This document shows, in pieces, positions 4,253 through 13,818 of a stretch of 33,012 nucleotides of DNA (the stretch's first letter is position 1; each line of letters starts with the position of its first letter). The notes under the pieces are model-generated. The model searched no databases, was not told where the DNA came from, and worked only from the letters and a program-made list of their open reading frames with translations. This DNA comes from Bacteroidia bacterium (GTDB lineage Bacteria; Bacteroidota; Bacteroidia; JANWJV01). The stretch is taken from NCBI GenBank assembly GCA_025451785.1, contig JANWJV010000093.1, positions 1 to 33,012 on the forward strand, read 5' to 3'. A program made the translations under genes and the position numbers.

Positions 4253-7200
4253 ATGAAAACACAGACGAAAAAGATGCTTGGAACAACCGTGGTAAGTATG
4301 GCGGTGCTGGGCATGATCGGATGGATGAGCCCGAGCAATGTCTACCAGTTAGCGGTAGAGAATGACTTCATAAAGTCACTGAAAAGCAAGCTCACCGAGT
4401 ACAACAAAGCGATGCCCGAAGACCGGGTGTATGTGCATTTTGACAAACCCTTTTATAAACCCGGCGAAACCATTTGGCTGGGAGCTTATGTAAGGAATGG
4501 CGCCGACCTCAAGCCTTCGCAGAAAAGCGATATCGTGCATGTGGAGCTTATCGGCCCCAAAGGAAACGTGGAGCGTACCATTAACCTGGTAGCGAAGAAC
4601 GGCAAAGCTGCCGGCGATTTCGCGCTCGACAAATACGCGGTAGGCGGTATGTATAAAGTACGTGCCTATACCAATTGGATGAAGAACGACCGGGCTGACA
4701 ACTGCTTTGAAAAAGAGCTGCAGGTGCAGGACATCGTACTTCCTAACCTTAAGATGAAGCTCGATTTTGAGCGTAAGGCTTTTGGCGCTGGTGACGAAGT
4801 GGTTGCCAAGCTGGAGCTTAACACCAACGAGAACAAAGCACTTACGAATTACAATTTCCGCTTTGTTGCCAATCTGAAAGGAGAGAAACTTCTTGAAAAG
4901 AACGCCGTTACCGATGAGAGCGGCGTTGCTTATGTAAGGTTCAGCCTTCCTTCGAAGCTTAGCTCTTCTGACGGACTGCTCAACGTGATGATCGACTATC
5001 AGGGCAGCACCGAAAGTGTTTCCCGTTCTATTCCAATTGTATTGAACAAAGTTAAACTGCAGCTCTTCCCCGAAGGCGGCGACCTGGTGAACGGCCTCGA
5101 AAGCAAAGTGGCTTTCCGTGCCCTCAACGAGTTCGACAAGCCTGCTGATGTGGAAGGTGTGGTGATGACCGCCAAAGGCAGCGTTGTTGAAACCTTCAGC
5201 AGCTACCACCAGGGTATGGGAGCATTCAGCTTCAAACCCCAGAAAGGCGAAGTATATACGGTGAAGATCACCAAACCCGAAGGTATTACAGAAGCGTACA
5301 CGCTTCCCGAAGCGCTTCCCAGGGGTTATGTGATGAGTGTTGACAACGGCAAGGACAACGAGTTGGGACTTAACATCAGCACTTCTGAAACAGAAGAGCT
5401 CTCCGTAGTTGCGCAAGTGCGCGGCAAGATCTATTACGCTTCCGCCTTCAACGCGGTGAACGGCTTCAACAAATTGGTGATCCCCACCGACAAGTTCCCC
5501 GCCGGTGTTGCGCAGGTAACCCTGTTCGACAGCAAAGGAGTGGAGCGTGCCGAGCGTCTTGCTTTCGTGAACCGCGACAAGCAGCTCAGCATTTCTATTG
5601 AGACCGACAAAGAAAAATACCTTCCCAGGGAAAAAGTAAGGATGACCGTTTCGGTAAAAGACGAACGCGGACTTCCGATGCCTGCCAACCTTTCGCTGGC
5701 AGTTACCAACGACCAGTTATTGGCTTTCGCCGATGACAAATCAGGCAACCTGCTTTCGCAGTTCCTGCTCCAGCAGGACCTTAACAGCAAAGTAGAAGAA
5801 CCCGCTTTCTATTTCAATAAAAAAGAGGCGAAATCAGAAAAAGCGCTTGACTACCTGCTGATGACCTCCGGATGGAGAAGGTTCACTTGGGAAAAGATCA
5901 TGAGCGAAGAGATGCCGCAAGTGGCTTATCAGCCCGAGATGGCGCTGATCTCCGGAACTCTTCTCGATGCTTCTACCAGGAAACCCCTGAAGGACGCTAC
6001 CGTGAAAGTGAACAACAGCGGCCAGACCATCACCACCAATTCCGAAGGCAAGTTCAGCTTCCGCGGTGTTGACCTGAGCTCGCCTGTTTACCTGAATCTT
6101 AGTGCGAATGGGTATACCAACCAAAATCAGTACGTATACAGTTACGGACAAGGTTATACTTACTACCTCTATAACCAGGATTACTATAATCGCAACTACG
6201 GTTATAATAACTACAAAGGATCGGGCACTCATACCCGTGCTAAGTTTGGAGGTGCTGCCGGTGCCGGTGCTGGTGTTCGCGTGAACAACGCTCCCGCTGC
6301 CGCACGTCCTGTTCAAAGGGAAGAATTTGCTGATGTAGGCATGGATGCAGCAATGCCCATGGTGCAGGAAGCAGAGATGGAGCGCGACGAGATCGCCGCG
6401 GTGAAACCTGTTGAAGACAGGAAGATGGTAGCAGAAAAGCAGCAGATGAACGCTCTTAAGAAAGATGAAGCGAAGAAGGCGGCGATAGCCAACAAAGGTC
6501 CGAAGGATATGGACCTTGACAAGAAGGCTAAAGAACCTGATGTTCGTGATGACAGGGCCGCTGCTTTCGGAAAAGTTGCCAGCGTTAACGGCGAGGCCTT
6601 TAACCGTCCCGCTAACAATAACGTGTACTACCGCGCCAGGCAGTTTGCCGCGCCGGTATACGACCAGGCACAAGCTGTGGAGGTAAGGACCGATTTCCGT
6701 TCTACCATTTACTGGAACCCGAACGTGGAAGTGGACCGCACCGGTAAGAAGACCGTTGAGTTCTATAACTCTGACGATATCACTTCGTTCCGCGCAACCG
6801 CTGAAGGTATCAGCAGCGACGGAATGGCCGGCAGGGCAGAGAAGACCTATTTCACCCAGCTGCCTTTCGCCCTCAGCACCAAGGTGCCTGTGGAAGTTGC
6901 TACTACCGACATCGTTTCTATTCCTTTGACATTAAAGAACAATACCGACAAGCCCCTGGGCGGAGCGCTTACCATTATTGCTCCCGACGGACTGCTTGCT
7001 CTGAACAAGATCGACATGGCGCAAACCATCATGCCCGGCAAGGCCAGGACCATTTACCTGGACTACAAAGTGCTTGACAAGATGGGCGAAGGCGAGTTCA
7101 CTCTCTCTTTCAAAGCCTGCGGCTTGAGCGATGCGTTCACACAAAAGATCAAAATGGTTGCTAAAGGTTTTCCTGTAACCGCTTCTTACTCGGCACAGGA

Positions 7201-8761
7201 ACTTGACAAAACCTACCATGTAGAGATGACCAATGTAGTGGACGGTTCTTTGAAAGCTACGCTTAACGTTTATCCCAGCGTAGTGAGCGACCTCATGAAA
7301 GGCATCGAAGGTATTCTTCGCGAACCGTACGGCTGCTTTGAGCAAACTTCTATGAGCAGCTATCCCAACGCGATGATCCTCGATTACCTGAAGACCACCG
7401 ACAGCAAAGACGAGAAGCTGCTTGCTTCTGCCGAAGGTCTGTTGGACCGCGGCTACAAGCGCCTCACTACTTTCGAAACAAAAGAAAAAGGTTACGAGTG
7501 GTTTGGTTCTAACCCCGGCCACGAAGCCTTGACCGCTTATGGTTTGATGCAGTTCTATGATATGAAAAAGGCCGGCGGCAAAGTGGATCAGAAAATGATC
7601 GACCGTACCGCGCAGTGGCTCATGGACCGCAGGGACAAGAAAGGCGGCTTTGAACAGAATAGCCGTGCGCTTGACAACTTCGGAAGGGCCAACAAAGACA
7701 TCGCTGACGCTTACATTGTGTATGCGCTCGCGGAAGCCGGCTTTGCTGACATCAAAGAAGAGTTCAATGCTTCTTACAAAAAAGCAATGGACACCAAAGA
7801 TCCTTACATGCTTGGCCTGATGGCGAACGCCGCGTACAAAATGGGCGAAACGCAGAAGGCTGACAACGCCATGAAGGCGCTGTACAGCAAACAAGCTGAG
7901 AACGGCAGCTGGACAGGTGCTTCGCACTCTATCACGTATTCAACCGGACAATCGCTTACCATCGAGACCACTTCACTGGCCATCATGGGCATGCTGAAAT
8001 CTGCCGGTCGTGATGTAGGCGCGCTTACCAAGTCGGTACAATGGCTGGTAGGTTCACGCGGAGGTTACGGAGCTTTCGGTAACACACAAGGTACTGTACT
8101 TGCTCTTAAGGCACTTACTGAATATGCTAAGTTCAGCAAGAAGACCAGCGAAGACGGCAGCGTAGAATTCTACGTTGACGGCAAGAAGATCGCTGAGCGT
8201 GCCTGGAAGAAAGGTGACAAAGAAGCCATCGTTCTCGACGGCCTCGAAAAACAGATCAAGCCCGGCAAGCACGACCTTAAAGTGAAATATGTTGGTGTTA
8301 GCGATCCCATGCCTTACTCGCTCGCGGTAAGCTGGAACACTACGCTTCCTGCCAGCAGCAAGGAGTGCACCGTTGACCTGAGGACCAAACTTTCGGCGAA
8401 GTCGGTGACTGTAGGTGAGACCGTACGTCTTACTACTACTGTTGCCAACACCAAGAACGAAGGTATCCCCAGCACCATGGCTATCATCGGCATCCCTGCG
8501 GGATTGACTGCGCAGCCCTGGCAGCTGAAGGAGTTGCAGGAGAAGAAGGTGTTCGACTACTACGAGATCATCGGCAACAACATCGCGGTATACTACCGTT
8601 GCATGGCGCCAGGTGAGAAGAGGGAGATCAACCTCGACCTTAAGGCCGAGATCCCCGGTGAGTACGACGCACCCGCTTCATCAGGTTACCTGTACTATAC
8701 TAACGAATACAAATGCTGGAGCGCAGCTGATAGGATCACTGTGAAAAAACCGCAGCTCTAA
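4253..8761 (+). CDS. Bacterial alpha-2-macroglobulin (protease-trap family)
   Basis: This 1502-residue exported protein has an N-terminal signal or anchor helix (residues 9-25; no lipobox Cys). Macroglobulin domains start at about 55 (RVYVHFDKPFYKPGETIWLG). A carboxypeptidase-regulatory-like domain lies at about 565-635 (SGTLLDASTRKPLKDATVKV). A Y/N-rich tract (about 622-660) and a very charged K/E/D/A tract (about 690-780) follow. The A2M core domain begins near 815 (TIYWNPNVEVDRTGKK). The thioester motif is PYGCFEQ with Cys1028 and Gln1031. An alpha-helical thioester domain runs to about 1295, and a C-terminal receptor-binding-like domain ends in PQL. The CxEQ motif is intact, so covalent protease trapping is plausible, as in enterobacterial A2M. 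There is no pbpC partner nearby, and no T9SS tail, so it is likely periplasmic or membrane-anchored. The family call is firm; the trapping role is inferred. Confidence 0.93.
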   Translation: MKTQTKKMLGTTVVSMAVLGMIGWMSPSNVYQLAVENDFIKSLKSKLTEYNKAMPEDRVYVHFDKPFYKPGETIWLGAYVRNGADLKPSQKSDIVHVELIGPKGNVERTINLVAKNGKAAGDFALDKYAVGGMYKVRAYTNWMKNDRADNCFEKELQVQDIVLPNLKMKLDFERKAFGAGDEVVAKLELNTNENKALTNYNFRFVANLKGEKLLEKNAVTDESGVAYVRFSLPSKLSSSDGLLNVMIDYQGSTESVSRSIPIVLNKVKLQLFPEGGDLVNGLESKVAFRALNEFDKPADVEGVVMTAKGSVVETFSSYHQGMGAFSFKPQKGEVYTVKITKPEGITEAYTLPEALPRGYVMSVDNGKDNELGLNISTSETEELSVVAQVRGKIYYASAFNAVNGFNKLVIPTDKFPAGVAQVTLFDSKGVERAERLAFVNRDKQLSISIETDKEKYLPREKVRMTVSVKDERGLPMPANLSLAVTNDQLLAFADDKSGNLLSQFLLQQDLNSKVEEPAFYFNKKEAKSEKALDYLLMTSGWRRFTWEKIMSEEMPQVAYQPEMALISGTLLDASTRKPLKDATVKVNNSGQTITTNSEGKFSFRGVDLSSPVYLNLSANGYTNQNQYVYSYGQGYTYYLYNQDYYNRNYGYNNYKGSGTHTRAKFGGAAGAGAGVRVNNAPAAARPVQREEFADVGMDAAMPMVQEAEMERDEIAAVKPVEDRKMVAEKQQMNALKKDEAKKAAIANKGPKDMDLDKKAKEPDVRDDRAAAFGKVASVNGEAFNRPANNNVYYRARQFAAPVYDQAQAVEVRTDFRSTIYWNPNVEVDRTGKKTVEFYNSDDITSFRATAEGISSDGMAGRAEKTYFTQLPFALSTKVPVEVATTDIVSIPLTLKNNTDKPLGGALTIIAPDGLLALNKIDMAQTIMPGKARTIYLDYKVLDKMGEGEFTLSFKACGLSDAFTQKIKMVAKGFPVTASYSAQELDKTYHVEMTNVVDGSLKATLNVYPSVVSDLMKGIEGILREPYGCFEQTSMSSYPNAMILDYLKTTDSKDEKLLASAEGLLDRGYKRLTTFETKEKGYEWFGSNPGHEALTAYGLMQFYDMKKAGGKVDQKMIDRTAQWLMDRRDKKGGFEQNSRALDNFGRANKDIADAYIVYALAEAGFADIKEEFNASYKKAMDTKDPYMLGLMANAAYKMGETQKADNAMKALYSKQAENGSWTGASHSITYSTGQSLTIETTSLAIMGMLKSAGRDVGALTKSVQWLVGSRGGYGAFGNTQGTVLALKALTEYAKFSKKTSEDGSVEFYVDGKKIAERAWKKGDKEAIVLDGLEKQIKPGKHDLKVKYVGVSDPMPYSLAVSWNTTLPASSKECTVDLRTKLSAKSVTVGETVRLTTTVANTKNEGIPSTMAIIGIPAGLTAQPWQLKELQEKKVFDYYEIIGNNIAVYYRCMAPGEKREINLDLKAEIPGEYDAPASSGYLYYTNEYKCWSAADRITVKKPQL

Positions 8762-8844: not shown

Positions 8845-9345
8845 ATGAAAACTTTCGCGGCACATACACTCGCTCTCCTACTGACACTCACACTGTCACT
8901 TGCAGGCTTCGCCCAGATCGACACTACCAAAGGCGACCCGCGTAAGGTCTATCCCCTGAGCGACCCGCGTAACCCTGATTGTCCTTGTCATAAATTGCAG
9001 GAGCAGGCAGATAAAGAATACGCGAAGCTGCAGGAGAAGGAGAAGAAGAACAATGAAAGGAATAAGGATAAGAACAACGATAAGAATGTTGTTGTTTTAA
9101 AAGACAAGGAGAACGACAAAGTGCCAGATCAACAGGTGAAGATCGCTCCGGATACTACTACTAAAGTCAATACTGTTAAGACCACGGTTACTTCTACCGG
9201 CGGAGGAAGCTCTGTAACGATCGATAAAGCAAATAAGAAAAAACACCGTCGCCGTTTCGCCAAATGGTGGAATAAAAAATGCGATGATTGGTTCCCCCGC
9301 CGCGACCGCTGGAAACTGAGGCAGGTGGATTGTTTTGATTGGTGA
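8845..9345 (+). CDS. Small secreted charged protein, unknown function
   Basis: I do not recognise this 166-residue protein. It has a clear signal peptide (residues 1-23, ending LAGFA before Q24). A Cys-Pro-Cys motif follows (Cys46, Cys48, in NPDCPCHKLQEQAD). A helical, extremely charged K/N/E/D tract spans about 52-95. A Thr/Val/Gly/Ser linker spans about 102-128. The C-terminal 35 residues are strongly basic and aromatic (KKKHRRRFAKWWNKKC, then DWFPRRDRWKLR) with Cys146 and Cys163. No T9SS tail or membrane helix is present, so the mature protein is probably periplasmic or outer-surface. The four cysteines could form disulfides or bind metal. It follows the A2M gene by 83 nt across a stem-loop, so the two could be partly cotranscribed. 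A link to A2M is conjecture. Confidence 0.75.
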   Translation: MKTFAAHTLALLLTLTLSLAGFAQIDTTKGDPRKVYPLSDPRNPDCPCHKLQEQADKEYAKLQEKEKKNNERNKDKNNDKNVVVLKDKENDKVPDQQVKIAPDTTTKVNTVKTTVTSTGGGSSVTIDKANKKKHRRRFAKWWNKKCDDWFPRRDRWKLRQVDCFDW

Positions 9346-9509: not shown

Positions 9510-12341
9510 ATGAGAAAAACCTTACCTCTTTCCATTTTCCTGTTTTTTATTTGTACTACCCTGGCGGCGCAGTCGCAGGACTGGGTATCGAAAATGCAGG
9601 ACCCCGATGCTAATTTCTATGAGGTTCAGAAAGCCTTTAACGATCATCTGAAGGCCAATCCTTCTATGGCCACGCAAAAAGGCAGCGGCTATAAAGTGTA
9701 TAAGCGTTGGGAAGCTTTTGTGGGCCCTCGTGTTTATCCCAGCGGCGATCGCTCCCAAATGGCGCAGGCCATGGAAGAACAAAAAAGCTTTTTGCTGAAT
9801 GGCAAAAGCGCCATGAAGAACGGTTCTCAAACAGTACAGGCCGGTAACTGGGCATTTCTTGGTCCGGCGGTAGTTCCTCAAAATACCGGTGGCGCAGGTC
9901 GCGCTAACTTTATAAGATTCCAACCCGGAAATAATAGCATCGTTTATACAGGCTCGCCCTCCGGCGGTCTCTGGAAGACCATTAACGGCGGCGGTTCCTG
10001 GGCCACCACTACCGATAACCTTGCCGTGATCGGCTGCACCGATGTGGCGATCGATCCTACCAATACCAATATCATGTACCTGGCCACGGGCGATGGCGAG
10101 GCCAGCGACAATTACAGCATCGGTGTGCTCAAGTCCACTGACGCAGGCGCCACCTGGGCGGTTAGCGGTCTTTCGTGGACGATCACACAAACACGCACCA
10201 TTAGCAAGCTGTTGATCAATCCAACTACAACAACTACTATTCTCGCCGCCACGAGCAATGGCGTATACCGTAGTACCAACAGCGGAACCAGCTGGACACA
10301 GGTGCTTGTTGCCAACGCAAAAGACATTGAGTTCAAACCCGGTGACGCGAATACGGTTTACGCTACCAGCGCGGGACCTCCTTCCAGTTTTTACCGCTCG
10401 CTCGACGGCGGTGCTACCTGGGGTGCGATCACATCGGGTCTTCCTTCTTCAGGCAGCTCCTGCAGGATGGCGATCGCTGTAACTCCCGCAGATCCCAATT
10501 ATGTTTATGTGGTATCGAGCCTTGCGGGCAATTATAAGTACCAGGGCGTTTATCTTTCCATCAATAGCGGCACCAGCTTCACCACGCAAAGCACTACACC
10601 CGATATTCTGAGCGTGACTACCACCAGCACTACAGGACAAGGATGGTACGACCTCGCCATCGCCGCTTCTCCCACAGTGAAGACAGAGATCATGGTGGCG
10701 GGCGTTAATATTTGGAAGTCAACCAACTCAGGCGGCACCTGGGGACTGGTGGGCCACTGGCAGGGCTTCGGCGCTGCGTATGTACATGCCGATGTTCATG
10801 CCCTTGAGTATATGCCAGGGAGCGGCACTGTTACTTGGGCAGGTTGTGATGGCGGATTATTTCGTACTTCGGATGGCGGTGTGAGCTGGAACGATTACTG
10901 CACCAATATGGCCATCGCGCAGATCTATCGCATCGGCCTTTCGAAATTCAATACCAGTACTTTCCTTACAGGCTGGCAGGACAACGGTACGTCACTTTAT
11001 AACGGAAGCTGGACCCGCGTATTTGGCGGCGATGGTATGGAATGCATCATGGACCATAGCAATCCTGTGAACGTGTATGCTTCACTGCAATATGGCGGCA
11101 TTTATAAATCGGTGGACGGCGGCGCTACCTTCAATCCAACACCTATTGTTGACAATACCGGTTCAGGCGTTAACGGGCAGGGCGACTGGACAACACCGTA
11201 TGTGATGGACTTCAATAACAATCTTAGTCTTTTGGTAGGCAAGGGACAAGTATACAGAACTACCAATGGCGGAAGCACCTGGGCGCAGGTGGGACTTATC
11301 ACGGGCGGCTCGGGCCCTTGCGTGGCACTGGCCATCGCACCTTCTAACAGCAATTATATTTACGCGGCGAGGTACAACAGGATGTTCGTTTCTACCGACG
11401 GCACCACGTTCGTTGACCGCACAGGAACACTTCCCGTAGCAAGCGCGGCCATCACCTTCATCGCGATATCTTATACGAATCCTTCTAAAGCATGGGTTAC
11501 TTTCTCCGGTTATTCAGGAGCAAATAAAGTAATGGCTACTACCGACGCAGGTGTTACCTGGACGAACATATCTACCGGTCTTCCCAATTTGCCGGTGAAC
11601 TGCATCGTGTACCAGAACGGCTCCAACGACGGTATTTATGTTGGCACCGATGTGGGCATTTACTGGAAAGACAATTCCAATGCCTGGACGAGCTACAGCA
11701 CCAACCTGCCCAACGTGGTAGTAAACGACATGGAGATACAGTACACAGTAGGCAAGCTTCGCGCTGCTACTTACGGAAGAGGAGTATGGGAAAGCAATAC
11801 GCAGCCCGCGCCTCCTGTTCCGCTCTTTACAGCTAACTCTACCACCATCTGTCAGCAGAAGACCGTGACCTTTACCGATCAAAGTACCGGCGGCGCCAAT
11901 ACCTGGAGCTGGACATTCGCGGGAGGAACGCCGGGTACTTCTACCTCACAGAATCCTACGATCACTTATAATACTCCAGGCACTTATAACGTAACGCTTG
12001 TAGCCGGCAACAGCAATGGCACCAATACACTGGTGAAGAACAGTTACATTACTGTGAACACCTGTGTAGGCATTGAAGAAGCGGTTGTGGAAGGTTCCTT
12101 TAAAGTATACCCCAACCCCAGCAACGGTCATTTCACGGTCACATTTAATTCGCTCACGAAAGACAATTATACCATCGAGGTCAGCAACGCGCTTGGGCAG
12201 GTAGTTTACACTAAGTCGCTGAAAGAGCACAGCGGGGAGTATTCAGCCCCCATCGATCTGAGCGCTCATGCAAAGGGAGCCTACCGCTTGACCATTAACG
12301 GTTCGGGGGGCACTATCGCCAGGAAAGTGCTGATATACTAG
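9510..12341 (+). CDS. Secreted Asp-box beta-propeller protein with PKD and T9SS type A domains
   Basis: This 943-residue exported protein has a signal peptide (residues 1-20, ending TLAAQ). About eleven Asp-box/BNR-like motifs of the form S-x-D-x-G-x-T-W follow, between residues about 155 and 680 (for example STDAGATW, SLDGGATW, TSDGGVSW, SVDGGATF, TTNGGSTW, TTDAGVTW). This predicts one or two sortilin/VPS10-like or sialidase-like propellers. A PKD domain follows at about 775-855 (VTFTDQSTGG, then WSWTFAGGTPGTSTSQNP). The T9SS type A sorting domain is at about 865-943 (FKVYPNPSNGHFTV, then GAYRLTI). No catalytic residues of sialidases are evident, so adhesion or glycan binding is as likely as enzymatic activity. 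It has its own promoter. Confidence 0.9.
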   Translation: MRKTLPLSIFLFFICTTLAAQSQDWVSKMQDPDANFYEVQKAFNDHLKANPSMATQKGSGYKVYKRWEAFVGPRVYPSGDRSQMAQAMEEQKSFLLNGKSAMKNGSQTVQAGNWAFLGPAVVPQNTGGAGRANFIRFQPGNNSIVYTGSPSGGLWKTINGGGSWATTTDNLAVIGCTDVAIDPTNTNIMYLATGDGEASDNYSIGVLKSTDAGATWAVSGLSWTITQTRTISKLLINPTTTTTILAATSNGVYRSTNSGTSWTQVLVANAKDIEFKPGDANTVYATSAGPPSSFYRSLDGGATWGAITSGLPSSGSSCRMAIAVTPADPNYVYVVSSLAGNYKYQGVYLSINSGTSFTTQSTTPDILSVTTTSTTGQGWYDLAIAASPTVKTEIMVAGVNIWKSTNSGGTWGLVGHWQGFGAAYVHADVHALEYMPGSGTVTWAGCDGGLFRTSDGGVSWNDYCTNMAIAQIYRIGLSKFNTSTFLTGWQDNGTSLYNGSWTRVFGGDGMECIMDHSNPVNVYASLQYGGIYKSVDGGATFNPTPIVDNTGSGVNGQGDWTTPYVMDFNNNLSLLVGKGQVYRTTNGGSTWAQVGLITGGSGPCVALAIAPSNSNYIYAARYNRMFVSTDGTTFVDRTGTLPVASAAITFIAISYTNPSKAWVTFSGYSGANKVMATTDAGVTWTNISTGLPNLPVNCIVYQNGSNDGIYVGTDVGIYWKDNSNAWTSYSTNLPNVVVNDMEIQYTVGKLRAATYGRGVWESNTQPAPPVPLFTANSTTICQQKTVTFTDQSTGGANTWSWTFAGGTPGTSTSQNPTITYNTPGTYNVTLVAGNSNGTNTLVKNSYITVNTCVGIEEAVVEGSFKVYPNPSNGHFTVTFNSLTKDNYTIEVSNALGQVVYTKSLKEHSGEYSAPIDLSAHAKGAYRLTINGSGGTIARKVLIY

Positions 12342-12397: not shown

Positions 12398-12405
12398 TAC
12401 TTTTG
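12398..12405 (+). promoter_or_regulatory. Candidate -7 promoter element of the C10 peptidase gene
   Basis: TACTTTTG matches TAnnTTTG exactly. A clear -33 TTTG is not seen. It sits over the alternative TTG start at 12403, so that start would lie upstream of the transcript and the ATG at 12427 is the usable one. Confidence 0.5.
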
Positions 12406-12426
12406 AGCTATCAAAAGACCAAGGCC

Positions 12427-13818
12427 ATGAAAAAGAACATTTACACCCTCCTCGCATCTCTCTTACTAACAGCACCTCTTTTTGCCAAAGAAGTGAGCCT
12501 GCAGCAAGTGGAGCAAGCCGCTCGCAAGATCTACGCGGAGCGCTTCCTTATCTATAGTGGCAGCACTACAGGGCCGGTTGTTTTTTCTGAGGCACTTACG
12601 CTATCCCGCAACAACGTTCCACTGATCCATGTATTTAATGTGGCTGGCGAGAAAGGCTTTGTGATGATGGCGGCGCAGGACAATGTGCAGCCCCTGCTGG
12701 CTTATACTTTTGAAGGAGCCTATAATAAGAACAACGAGCAGCCTGCTTTTACTGATTGGGTAGAGAATTATATGGACCAGGTGGCCTATTGTGTGGAGAA
12801 GGCACTTCCTTCTACCGCAGGTATCGATAAGGCCTGGAACATGTTCCTGGGTAAGAATGTGGTGACAGCAACTTCCTCCGCTAACGTTGGCCCTTTGATG
12901 AGCACCAAATGGAACCAGGGTTGTTATTATAATGAGCAGTGTCCTACCATCTCCACCGGCGGACAATGCAGCAGGGCCTGGACAGGCTGCGGCGCTACGG
13001 CCATGGCGCAGATGATGAAGTATCACAATCATCCGTCAACGGGTACAGGATCTAATTCTTATACCTGGATGGGCAATACCCTCAGCGCCAACTTCGCTGC
13101 CAGCACGTATAATTTCAGCAGCATGCCCAACAGCGCTTCTTCTTCTAACACACAACTGGCGCAATTGATGTCGCATGCAGGCATCGCGCTCAACATGAAC
13201 TACGGGAGTTCAAGCTCTACTTGTTTTTTCGACATGGGAACCATACTGCCTAAGTACTTCAAGTACGCGCCCATCGCTCAGAACTGGTCGAAGCTTTTCA
13301 TCACCAACGATACTGTTTACCAGAACCGCATTGCCGCGGAACTCGACTCACTGCGCCCCGTGTTCTACAAGGGCGGCGGACACTTCTATCTCATCGACGG
13401 TTACCAGAACGCATATCCCTATTACTTCCATGTGAACTGGGGATGGGGAGGACTGTATGATGGCTATTATTATTGCAGCGCGCTCAATCCCGGCTCGTAC
13501 AATTTCACTTCCGGACAGGGCGCCATCATCCGCATAATGCCTCAAAGCATTACCACCGGAGTGGAGGAGGAGCATGTTTCGGGAGAACTGCATCTGTATC
13601 CCAATCCTGCTAACGAAGTGCTGAACATTGAATGGGATGAGCCTGTGGATAACATCACCATCATTAACAGCCTTGGACAAATTGTCCTCACAAATCAACA
13701 ATCAGCAATCAACGATCAACAATCGATGGATATCAGATCACTCCCCACCGGTCTTTATTTCGTGGAAGTTTATTCGGGGAGCATACAAAAGACCTCCCGC
13801 CTGGTGATTTCCCGCTAA
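12427..13818 (+). CDS. Secreted C10-family (streptopain-like) cysteine peptidase with T9SS tail
   Basis: From the ATG at 12427 the product is 463 residues. It has a signal peptide (MKKNIYTLLASLLLTAPLFA), a propeptide (about 21-150, EVSLQQVEQAARKIYAERF onward) that in this family inhibits the zymogen, then the catalytic domain. The nucleophile is Cys188 in TGCGATAMAQMMKYH and the catalytic His319 is in GGGHFYLIDGY. The family signature VNWGWGG follows. The Cys-His spacing is close to that of streptopain. A T9SS type A sorting domain ends the protein (LHLYPNPANEVLNIEW, then LPTGLYFVEV). A TTG start at 12403 would add eight residues ahead of the signal peptide and is rejected because the -7 element overlaps it. 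A short heptamer repeat lies inside the sorting domain. It is expected to be an extracellular protease. Confidence 0.93.
   Translation: MKKNIYTLLASLLLTAPLFAKEVSLQQVEQAARKIYAERFLIYSGSTTGPVVFSEALTLSRNNVPLIHVFNVAGEKGFVMMAAQDNVQPLLAYTFEGAYNKNNEQPAFTDWVENYMDQVAYCVEKALPSTAGIDKAWNMFLGKNVVTATSSANVGPLMSTKWNQGCYYNEQCPTISTGGQCSRAWTGCGATAMAQMMKYHNHPSTGTGSNSYTWMGNTLSANFAASTYNFSSMPNSASSSNTQLAQLMSHAGIALNMNYGSSSSTCFFDMGTILPKYFKYAPIAQNWSKLFITNDTVYQNRIAAELDSLRPVFYKGGGHFYLIDGYQNAYPYYFHVNWGWGGLYDGYYYCSALNPGSYNFTSGQGAIIRIMPQSITTGVEEEHVSGELHLYPNPANEVLNIEWDEPVDNITIINSLGQIVLTNQQSAINDQQSMDIRSLPTGLYFVEVYSGSIQKTSRLVISR
13694..13721 (+). repeat. Four tandem heptamers inside the C10 peptidase gene
   Basis: The units ATCAACA, ATCAGCA, ATCAACG and ATCAACA are contiguous. 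They lie in the coding sequence between two beta strands of the T9SS sorting domain and encode a Q/N/S-rich loop. Since 7 is not a multiple of 3, a change in unit number would shift the frame. Confidence 0.8.

What the first reader, a model, noticed from the sequence alone, without database searches (positions are those of the whole stretch)
6118..6595. Y/N-rich then highly charged low-complexity insert in the A2M protein, placed like a bait region
Residues about 622-660 are dominated by Tyr, Asn, Gly and Gln, and about 690-780 by Lys, Glu, Asp, Ala and Met with many Lys/Arg sites. The insert lies after a carboxypeptidase-regulatory domain and just before the A2M core, upstream of the thioester Cys1028. 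In eukaryotic A2M the protease-cleaved bait region is at the corresponding place. A disordered, protease-sensitive tract here could be the bait of a Bacteroidota-specific trap, and the Y/N-rich part may self-associate.
Basis: partly seen in the sequence, partly recalled or inferred. Interest (0 to 1): 0.6.

Follow-up and report, generated by a model that had tools for sequence, protein, structure and literature searches.

The report
Bait-like tract in bacterial alpha-2-macroglobulin
The odd low-complexity stretch sits exactly where animal alpha-2-macroglobulins carry the bait that proteases cut to spring the trap; it looks disordered and changes very fast between species, and some relatives carry a transporter's plug domain in the same slot.

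Summary
In detail: residues 622-660 are Y/N/G/Q-rich (0.72) and 690-780 K/R/E/D/A/M-rich (0.68), each more extreme than elsewhere in the 1502-aa protein and than 2000 shuffles.

The bait reading is well supported by position and evolution, but untested biochemically. The tract (647-790, after a SusC-type carboxypeptidase-regulatory domain) lies just before R812/F815, counterparts of human A2M R732/F735, whose release from a channel is the trigger. The thioester is kept in 83/83 relatives; R812, F815 and D960 in 78/83 each. The tract is 16% identical between orthologues whose flanks are about 60% identical, varies in length, and is predicted disordered. In relatives lacking the thioester domain the same slot is as conserved as the rest.

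The Y/N-rich part is mostly the end of the regulatory domain; self-association is not supported.

Unexpected: in relatives the slot holds a TonB-receptor plug (6 proteins, one more degenerate) or a TonB C-terminal domain (4). Five plug-bearing A2M genes directly follow a SusC-like barrel gene lacking its plug, suggesting a transporter split between two genes. Some plugless linkers keep a TonB-box-like motif. The window's own tract has neither.

The parts
4253..8761 (+). A2M-family protein, 1502 aa, N-terminal signal-like segment, no lipobox
   Evidence: ORF; Pfam MG2/A2M/TED; profile matches human A2M, CD109, TEP1; lipobox check
4424..4699 (+). MG2 domain (residues 58-149)
   Evidence: PF01835 E 2.6e-17
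4736..4753 (+). VLPNLK (residues 162-167), counterpart of the human MG2-MG3 linker (VLPKFE) that roofs the channel
   Evidence: alignment to human A2M; position; channel role from PMC9352918
5711..5905 (+). helical stretch 487-551 ending GWRRFTW, judged the LNK equivalent just before the slot (judgement; no direct alignment to human LNK obtained)
   Evidence: helices in AF2 model; conserved in orthologues
5939..6196 (+). CarboxypepD_reg-like domain (563-648), SusC N-terminal type; absent in L121 and L157
   Evidence: PF13715 E 9.2e-9; folded in AF2; best PDB match SusC homolog 9hfj E 0.014; no match in L121/L157
6116..6232 (+). Y/N/G/Q-rich run 622-660: end of the regulatory domain plus a lineage-specific extension
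   Evidence: composition; alignment; AF2
6191..6622 (+). hypervariable K/E/D/A/M-rich linker 647-790 = proposed bait (25 K/R, 22 D/E, no Cys)
   Evidence: pLDDT 25-34; 16% identity, 40% gapped positions; composition
6623..6685 (+). conserved segment 791-811 (VYYRARQFAAPVYDQAQAVEV) between linker and alpha'NT core; F798 (F or Y) in 83/83, R794 in 68/83
6686..6715 (+). alpha'NT core RTDFRSTIYW (812-821); R812 = human R732, F815 = human F735
   Evidence: alignments; conserved 78/83 each
6704..6961 (+). A2M domain PF00207 (818-903)
   Evidence: E 1.6e-10
7130..7132 (+). D960, counterpart of human D897 that pairs with R732 after cleavage
   Evidence: alignment; 78/83; role from PMC9352918
7277..8125 (+). 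thioester domain (1009-1291)
   Evidence: PF07678
7331..7345 (+). thioester motif GCFEQ (1027-1031)
   Evidence: C1028 and Q1031 in 83/83
8845..9345 (+). conserved downstream gene: 166 aa, signal peptide-like start, DPRNPxCPCH motif, basic low-complexity middle, C-terminal CFDW
   Evidence: C-terminal CxxW/F at +1 in 34 of 41 linker-type loci that have a same-strand +1 ORF vs 2 of 269 control ORFs

Best explanation
The tract is the bait region of a thioester A2M of animal-like architecture made by Bacteroidota. The slot between the LNK-like helices and the alpha'NT segment (R812-F815) is filled by a SusC-type carboxypeptidase-regulatory domain followed by a roughly 145-residue disordered linker rich in Lys, Glu, Asp, Ala and Met. 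A protease that cuts anywhere in the linker breaks the chain upstream of alpha'NT. Alpha'NT is then pulled out of the MG2-MG3 channel and R812 docks on D960 of MG7. The molecule collapses and the C1028-Q1031 thioester is exposed and couples to a lysine of the protease. Shown here: position, predicted disorder, hypervariability, and conservation of trigger residues and thioester. Inferred: cleavage in the linker, the conformational change, thioester reactivity, and which proteases are trapped.
For: Position: profile alignment puts window 'VEVRTDFRSTIYW' on human A2M 'TETVRKYFPETW', so the linker lies where human bait 690-728 lies (PMC8267569). Trigger parts: R812, F815, D960 each in 78/83 relatives, C1028 and Q1031 in 83/83; their roles are from PMC9352918. 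Disorder: AF2 pLDDT 25-34 and no secondary structure at 647-817 while most neighbouring blocks score 70-94. Variability: linker 16% identical with 40% gapped positions, flanks 59-61% with none; dN/dS 0.15-0.35 in the linker vs 0.04-0.08 in the core for the five closest pairs, so it is coding but loosely constrained. Composition is kept although sequence is not: K/R 7-21%, D/E 9-25%, hydrophobics 11-29%. Link to the thioester: in five relatives without a thioester domain the same slot is 58% identical with 2% gaps, like their core. A linker persists where the regulatory domain is absent (L121, L157). Fold: best PDB matches are A2ML1, A2Moo, CD109 and A2M. A bait needs no particular sequence, since a Gly-Ser bait allows native folding and works once a cleavage site is added (PMC8267569).
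Against: No biochemistry. The linker (about 145 aa) is far longer than human bait (39 aa), and lengthening human bait predisposes A2M to collapse (PMC9352918). K/R density is only modestly above the rest of the protein (0.18 vs 0.13). Low pLDDT partly reflects unalignable columns; a charge-hydropathy index calls the window's linker borderline. dN/dS below 1 in the closest pairs gives no sign of positive selection. Some thioester-bearing relatives carry a folded-domain family (plug) in the slot, so a disordered bait is not universal in the wider family.
Confidence: 0.66

Rival explanations
1. The linker is a passive spacer left after loss of a TonB-box and plug module; it tethers the regulatory domain and has no bait role.
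For: Relatives carry TonB box + plug in the same slot; 9 of 67 linkers keep a TonB-box-like [LIVM]xE[VI]x[VIL] motif at a similar place, against a shuffled mean of 0.5, maximum 4; plug and TonB_C lineages branch outside or near the base of the linker clade on a midpoint-rooted tree.
Against: Thioester and trigger residues remain under strong constraint, so activation must still come from somewhere; linker length is held at 85-133 aa in 26 orthologues instead of decaying; a linker persists where the regulatory domain is gone. A plug ancestry does not exclude a bait function.
Confidence: 0.14
2. The linker is a docking site, for the conserved downstream small Cys/basic protein or for TonB, and its signal is binding rather than cleavage.
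For: A downstream gene ending in CxxW/F accompanies 34 of 41 linker-type loci with a same-strand +1 ORF; TonB-box-like motif in some linkers.
Against: No conserved motif in the linker that a partner could read; the window's own linker has no TonB-box-like motif; the partner was not recognised at +1 in 20 of 54 linker loci.
Confidence: 0.12
3. The real scissile site is the conserved YYRARxF segment (792-798), a processing site like complement convertase sites, and the upstream linker is only slack.
For: R794 in 68/83 and F798 (or Tyr) in 83/83, directly upstream of alpha'NT.
Against: Conservation of F and flanking residues fits packing in the channel just as well; the plug-bearing relatives lack R794 but keep F798.
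Confidence: 0.06
4. The Y/N-rich run is a prion-like self-associating or adhesive element.
For: Composition.
Against: More than half lies in the folded regulatory domain; homologues have a short conserved VYLYxxxYY there with no Y/N expansion.
Confidence: 0.02

Closest known systems
Animal alpha-2-macroglobulin, A2ML1, CD109, TEP1 (thioester A2M superfamily)
   Same: MG2, A2M and TED domains, CxEQ thioester, alpha'NT R/F and MG7 Asp, unstructured poorly conserved segment before alpha'NT; profile E about 1e-45 and fold E about 1e-40
   Different: About 250-residue insert (regulatory domain + linker) in place of the 39-residue bait; GCFEQ in place of GCGEQ; bacterial; little sequence before the MG2 domain
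Bacterial type I A2M (E. coli YfhM/ECAM, Salmonella)
   Same: Bacterial thioester A2M with an MG-TED core; fold match
   Different: Those carry bMG-type domains and are lipoproteins; ordinary Bacteroidota A2Ms are about 1850 aa. The window's protein has none of the bMG models, no lipobox and no PBP1C-type neighbour. The same genome holds such an ordinary A2M separately (L078).
Complement C3/C4/C5
   Same: The slot before alpha'NT is cut by proteases to trigger thioester exposure
   Different: Their slot holds a conserved folded anaphylatoxin domain (PMC8267569); here a hypervariable linker. Plug-bearing relatives resemble complement more, in having a domain family in the slot.
SusC/RagA TonB-dependent transporters
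   Same: The regulatory domain in the slot is of the SusC N-terminal type; relatives also hold the TonB box and plug
   Different: No barrel and, in the window protein, no plug or TonB box

Membership tests
A2M superfamily (thioester type) | CxEQ thioester in a TED domain | tested here: met
   GCFEQ at 1027-1031, PF07678 E 2.2e-34; 83/83 relatives. Extraction required CFEQ, but all 65 fetched loci had it.
A2M superfamily (thioester type) | MG domains and PF00207 A2M domain upstream of TED | tested here: met
   fold match to A2ML1 and A2M
A2M superfamily (thioester type) | alpha'NT Arg/Phe and acidic partner on MG7 | tested here: met
   R812, F815, D960 by alignment and conserved; channel threading itself not seen
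A2M superfamily (thioester type) | Unstructured, poorly conserved bait before alpha'NT | tested here: met
   (prediction and comparison only)
A2M superfamily (thioester type) | Bait cleavage causes collapse and covalent protease trapping | not testable with these tools
   needs protein
Bacterial type I A2M (YfhM/ECAM-like) | bMG3/bMG5/bMG6/bMG10 domains | tested here: not met
   none, whereas the own paralogue L078 has them
Bacterial type I A2M (YfhM/ECAM-like) | Lipoprotein anchor and PBP1C neighbour | tested here: not met
   no lipobox; neighbours are PurD-like, DUF6427, amidotransferase and T9SS-tail proteins
Plug-bearing A2M (subgroup seen here) | PF07715 plug in the slot and plugless SusC barrel gene directly upstream | tested here: not met
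   window protein has no plug; own genome (84.6% complete) has no match to the plugless-barrel profile at E <= 1e-60

The most novel reading that the evidence does not exclude
The A2M bait slot of this Bacteroidota family is an exchange site for TonB-system modules. In five plug-bearing members (L033, L074, L076, L077, L164) the plug of a SusC-type transporter has moved into the A2M and the neighbouring barrel is plugless, so the A2M would close the barrel in trans, and TonB or a protease could spring the trap by acting on the plug. The window's disordered bait descends from such a module by loss of plug and TonB box.
Probability: 0.4. Interest if true: 0.88.

Novelty: new variant of a known kind. 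Interest (0 to 1): 0.62.

Why it matters
It extends the animal-type bait-trigger design to a broad group of Bacteroidota: 63 of 395 sampled genomes of the window's class carry the family. The slot holds a disordered linker in most members and a TonB plug or a TonB C-terminal domain in others, which makes the open question of what may sit in the slot, and what triggers the collapse, directly testable. If the plug-in-A2M and plugless-barrel pairs form one assembly, they would be a transporter whose gate is part of a protease trap; I found no counterpart in the papers I could search.

Tried and rejected
Genus, family and order searches returned only the own genome, so comparison used class and phylum. 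AF2 of the plug-bearing slot was too poor to use (mean pLDDT 44.5, six sequences); the plug claim rests on Pfam, NCBIfam and HMM matches instead, and no fold search was run on it. A charge-hydropathy test of disorder was inconclusive for the window's linker. Positive selection on the tract was looked for and not found (dN/dS below 1 in the closest pairs). A profile with the tract included did not align this region to human A2M, and removing the insert extended the alignment only to human residue 720, so LNK equivalence is a judgement from secondary structure. Tandem-repeat origin: TRF reports one short match in the tract (6256-6275, period 6, score 33), too small to explain it. Literature searches for Bacteroidetes A2M with bait region or with TonB-dependent receptors returned no papers holding all terms; wider searches gave nothing on plug-bearing A2Ms.

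Full report
What is there. The finding lies in one 1502-aa ORF, 4253-8761 on the + strand. Pfam finds MG2 58-149, a CarboxypepD_reg-like domain 566-629, the A2M domain 818-903 and TED 1009-1291. The thioester motif is GCFEQ with Cys 1028. The composition claims are right: 622-660 is 0.72 Y/N/G/Q (at most 0.33 in any other window) and 690-780 is 0.68 K/R/E/D/A/M (at most 0.56), with 0 of 2000 shuffles reaching either.

What family it belongs to. Against solved structures, a profile of the window protein and its orthologues matches CD109, human A2M and TEP1 at about 1e-46 to 4e-44 and the E. coli and Salmonella A2Ms only at about 1e-16 to 5e-14. The AF2 model of 351-1502 matches A2ML1, A2Moo and CD109 best. 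It has none of the bMG domains of ordinary bacterial A2M. The same genome has one ordinary bacterial A2M as well (L078, GCVEQ). Of 297 genomes of the phylum 94 carry a TED match; most lie in frames of about 1800-1900 aa, and five genomes (G000, G226, G133, G021, G210) were recognised as carrying the roughly 1500-aa type. In the window's class the type is in 63 of 395 genomes.

The slot. Orthologues at 49-61% identity show one region of collapse: 661-790 has mean identity 0.12 to the window protein, while 451-560 before the slot and 791-905 after it have 0.63-0.70. Pairwise over the family, 647-790 is 16% identical with 40% gapped positions; the flanks are 59% and 61% with no gaps. AF2 gives pLDDT 25-34 and no secondary structure for 647-817, against 70-94 for most neighbouring blocks. 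The linker keeps its composition. In the five closest pairs its dN/dS is 0.15-0.35 against 0.04-0.08 in the core, so it is a real, loosely constrained coding segment. The carboxypeptidase-regulatory domain in front of it is of the SusC N-terminal kind (best PDB match 9hfj, E 0.014) and is absent in L121 and L157, which keep a linker.

Why bait. Harwood and colleagues give human bait as residues 690-728, unstructured and poorly conserved, and show that a Gly-Ser bait folds natively and works once a cleavage site is added (PMC8267569). They show that the segment after it, alpha'NT with R732 and F735, threads a channel made by MG2, MG3 and LNK, and that its release on cleavage is the trigger, with R732 then pairing with D897 of MG7 (PMC9352918). 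In the alignments R812, F815 and D960 take these places, and each is kept in 78 of 83 relatives, with C1028 and Q1031 in all 83. So the linker ends just before a conserved trigger segment. A control supports the link to the trap: five relatives without a thioester domain (L036-L040) have in the same slot an insert as conserved (58%) as their core (54-61%) with 2% gaps. That control is small.

The Y/N-rich part. Homologues have a short VYLYxxxYY at this place, AF2 places the first half in a strand of the regulatory domain, and the long Y/N extension is peculiar to the window protein among the 30 aligned. There is no support for self-association.

What relatives put in the slot. L033, L074, L076, L077, L162 and L164 have a TonB-receptor plug there (Pfam Plug E 3e-19 to 7e-13 in the four scanned; a plug HMM built here finds all six). 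L156 has a weaker plug match; L154, L165, L166 and L167 have a TonB C-terminal domain, and L166 has both. On a FastTree of 83 core sequences, five of the six plug-bearing members group with L168/L169 outside the clade that holds all linker types, and the remaining plug, degenerate-plug and TonB_C members branch near the base of that clade. The root is by midpoint and several branches are long, so direction is inference. Nine of 67 linkers keep a TonB-box-like motif against a shuffled mean of 0.5 and maximum of 4.

The barrel next door. In L074, L076, L077, L164 and L033 the gene directly upstream, same strand, gives no Plug match. A profile of these five matches SusC-family structure 5fq6 only from residue 162 to the end, i.e. 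the barrel (E 1.6e-45). Searching 396 genomes, the only matches from profile position 3-4 to the end are the three beside plug-bearing A2Ms (frames 923-958 aa); the rest start at 143 or later and nearly all have frames above 1000 aa. As a control the plug HMM finds 8 of 8 ordinary SusC relatives tested (1e-30 or better) and neither of the two A2M-linked barrels in that test. NCBIfam's SusC/RagA model matches both halves of the L074 pair, the barrel gene and the A2M, and the A2M passes the cut-off of the SusC plug signature TIGR04057. The reading is a transporter split over two genes, with the plug in the A2M. Nothing shows that the two proteins touch.

The gene after the window's A2M. The 166-aa product (8845-9345) belongs to a BLAST cluster found at +1 in 24 loci and at +2 in one, the window included. 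34 of 41 linker-type loci with a same-strand +1 ORF have a product ending in CxxW/F, against 2 of 269 other short ORFs. Its role is unknown; a small partner of the A2M is the simplest guess.

Mechanism and certainty. Best account: the linker is bait, cleavage releases alpha'NT, the molecule collapses and the thioester couples to the protease. Position, predicted disorder, variability and conserved trigger residues are shown; cleavage, collapse and trapping are inferred from the family. Target proteases are unknown. A C10-type protease with its own inhibitor domain and a T9SS tail is encoded nearby (12403-13818), but it is not a conserved neighbour.

Limits. Most sequences come from metagenome assemblies. 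Low pLDDT partly reflects unalignable columns. The LNK equivalence is not shown by alignment. The library of papers is incomplete, so 'not described' means not found there.

Noticed in passing
window 8845-9345: Downstream small secreted basic protein with DPRNPxCPCH and C-terminal CFDW; a C-terminal CxxW/F product sits at +1 in 34 of 41 linker-type A2M loci with a same-strand +1 ORF, against 2 of 269 control ORFs.
   Followed up: partly
L074, L076, L077, L164, L033: Thioester A2M with a TonB box and plug in the bait slot, directly after a SusC-like barrel gene that lacks its plug: apparent split transporter.
   Followed up: partly
L154, L165, L166, L167 (slot region): TonB C-terminal domain (PF03544) inserted in the A2M bait slot; L166 has plug and TonB_C together.
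   Followed up: partly
L036-L040: Bacteroidota MG2 proteins of about 800-845 aa without TED that keep the slot with a conserved insert (with a plug-like LLDGVPV stretch) and the DFRxxLYW flank.
   Followed up: partly
L078 (G000:C55): Own genome's second, ordinary bacterial A2M (GCVEQ, bMG domains), running to the contig end.
   Followed up: no
window 12403-13818: C10 (streptopain-like) peptidase with Spi inhibitor prodomain and T9SS sorting tail, three genes downstream; possible self protease near the trap.
   Followed up: no
window 9510-12341: Sortilin-Vps10-like plus PKD protein with T9SS tail.
   Followed up: no
window 5834-6673 (-): 279-aa antisense open frame over the tract; no homology test made, probably a by-product of codon composition.
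   Followed up: no
L168, L169: Deep-branching members of about 1415-1425 aa with CFEQ thioester but a different, unrecognised insert and no RxDFR motif.
   Followed up: no
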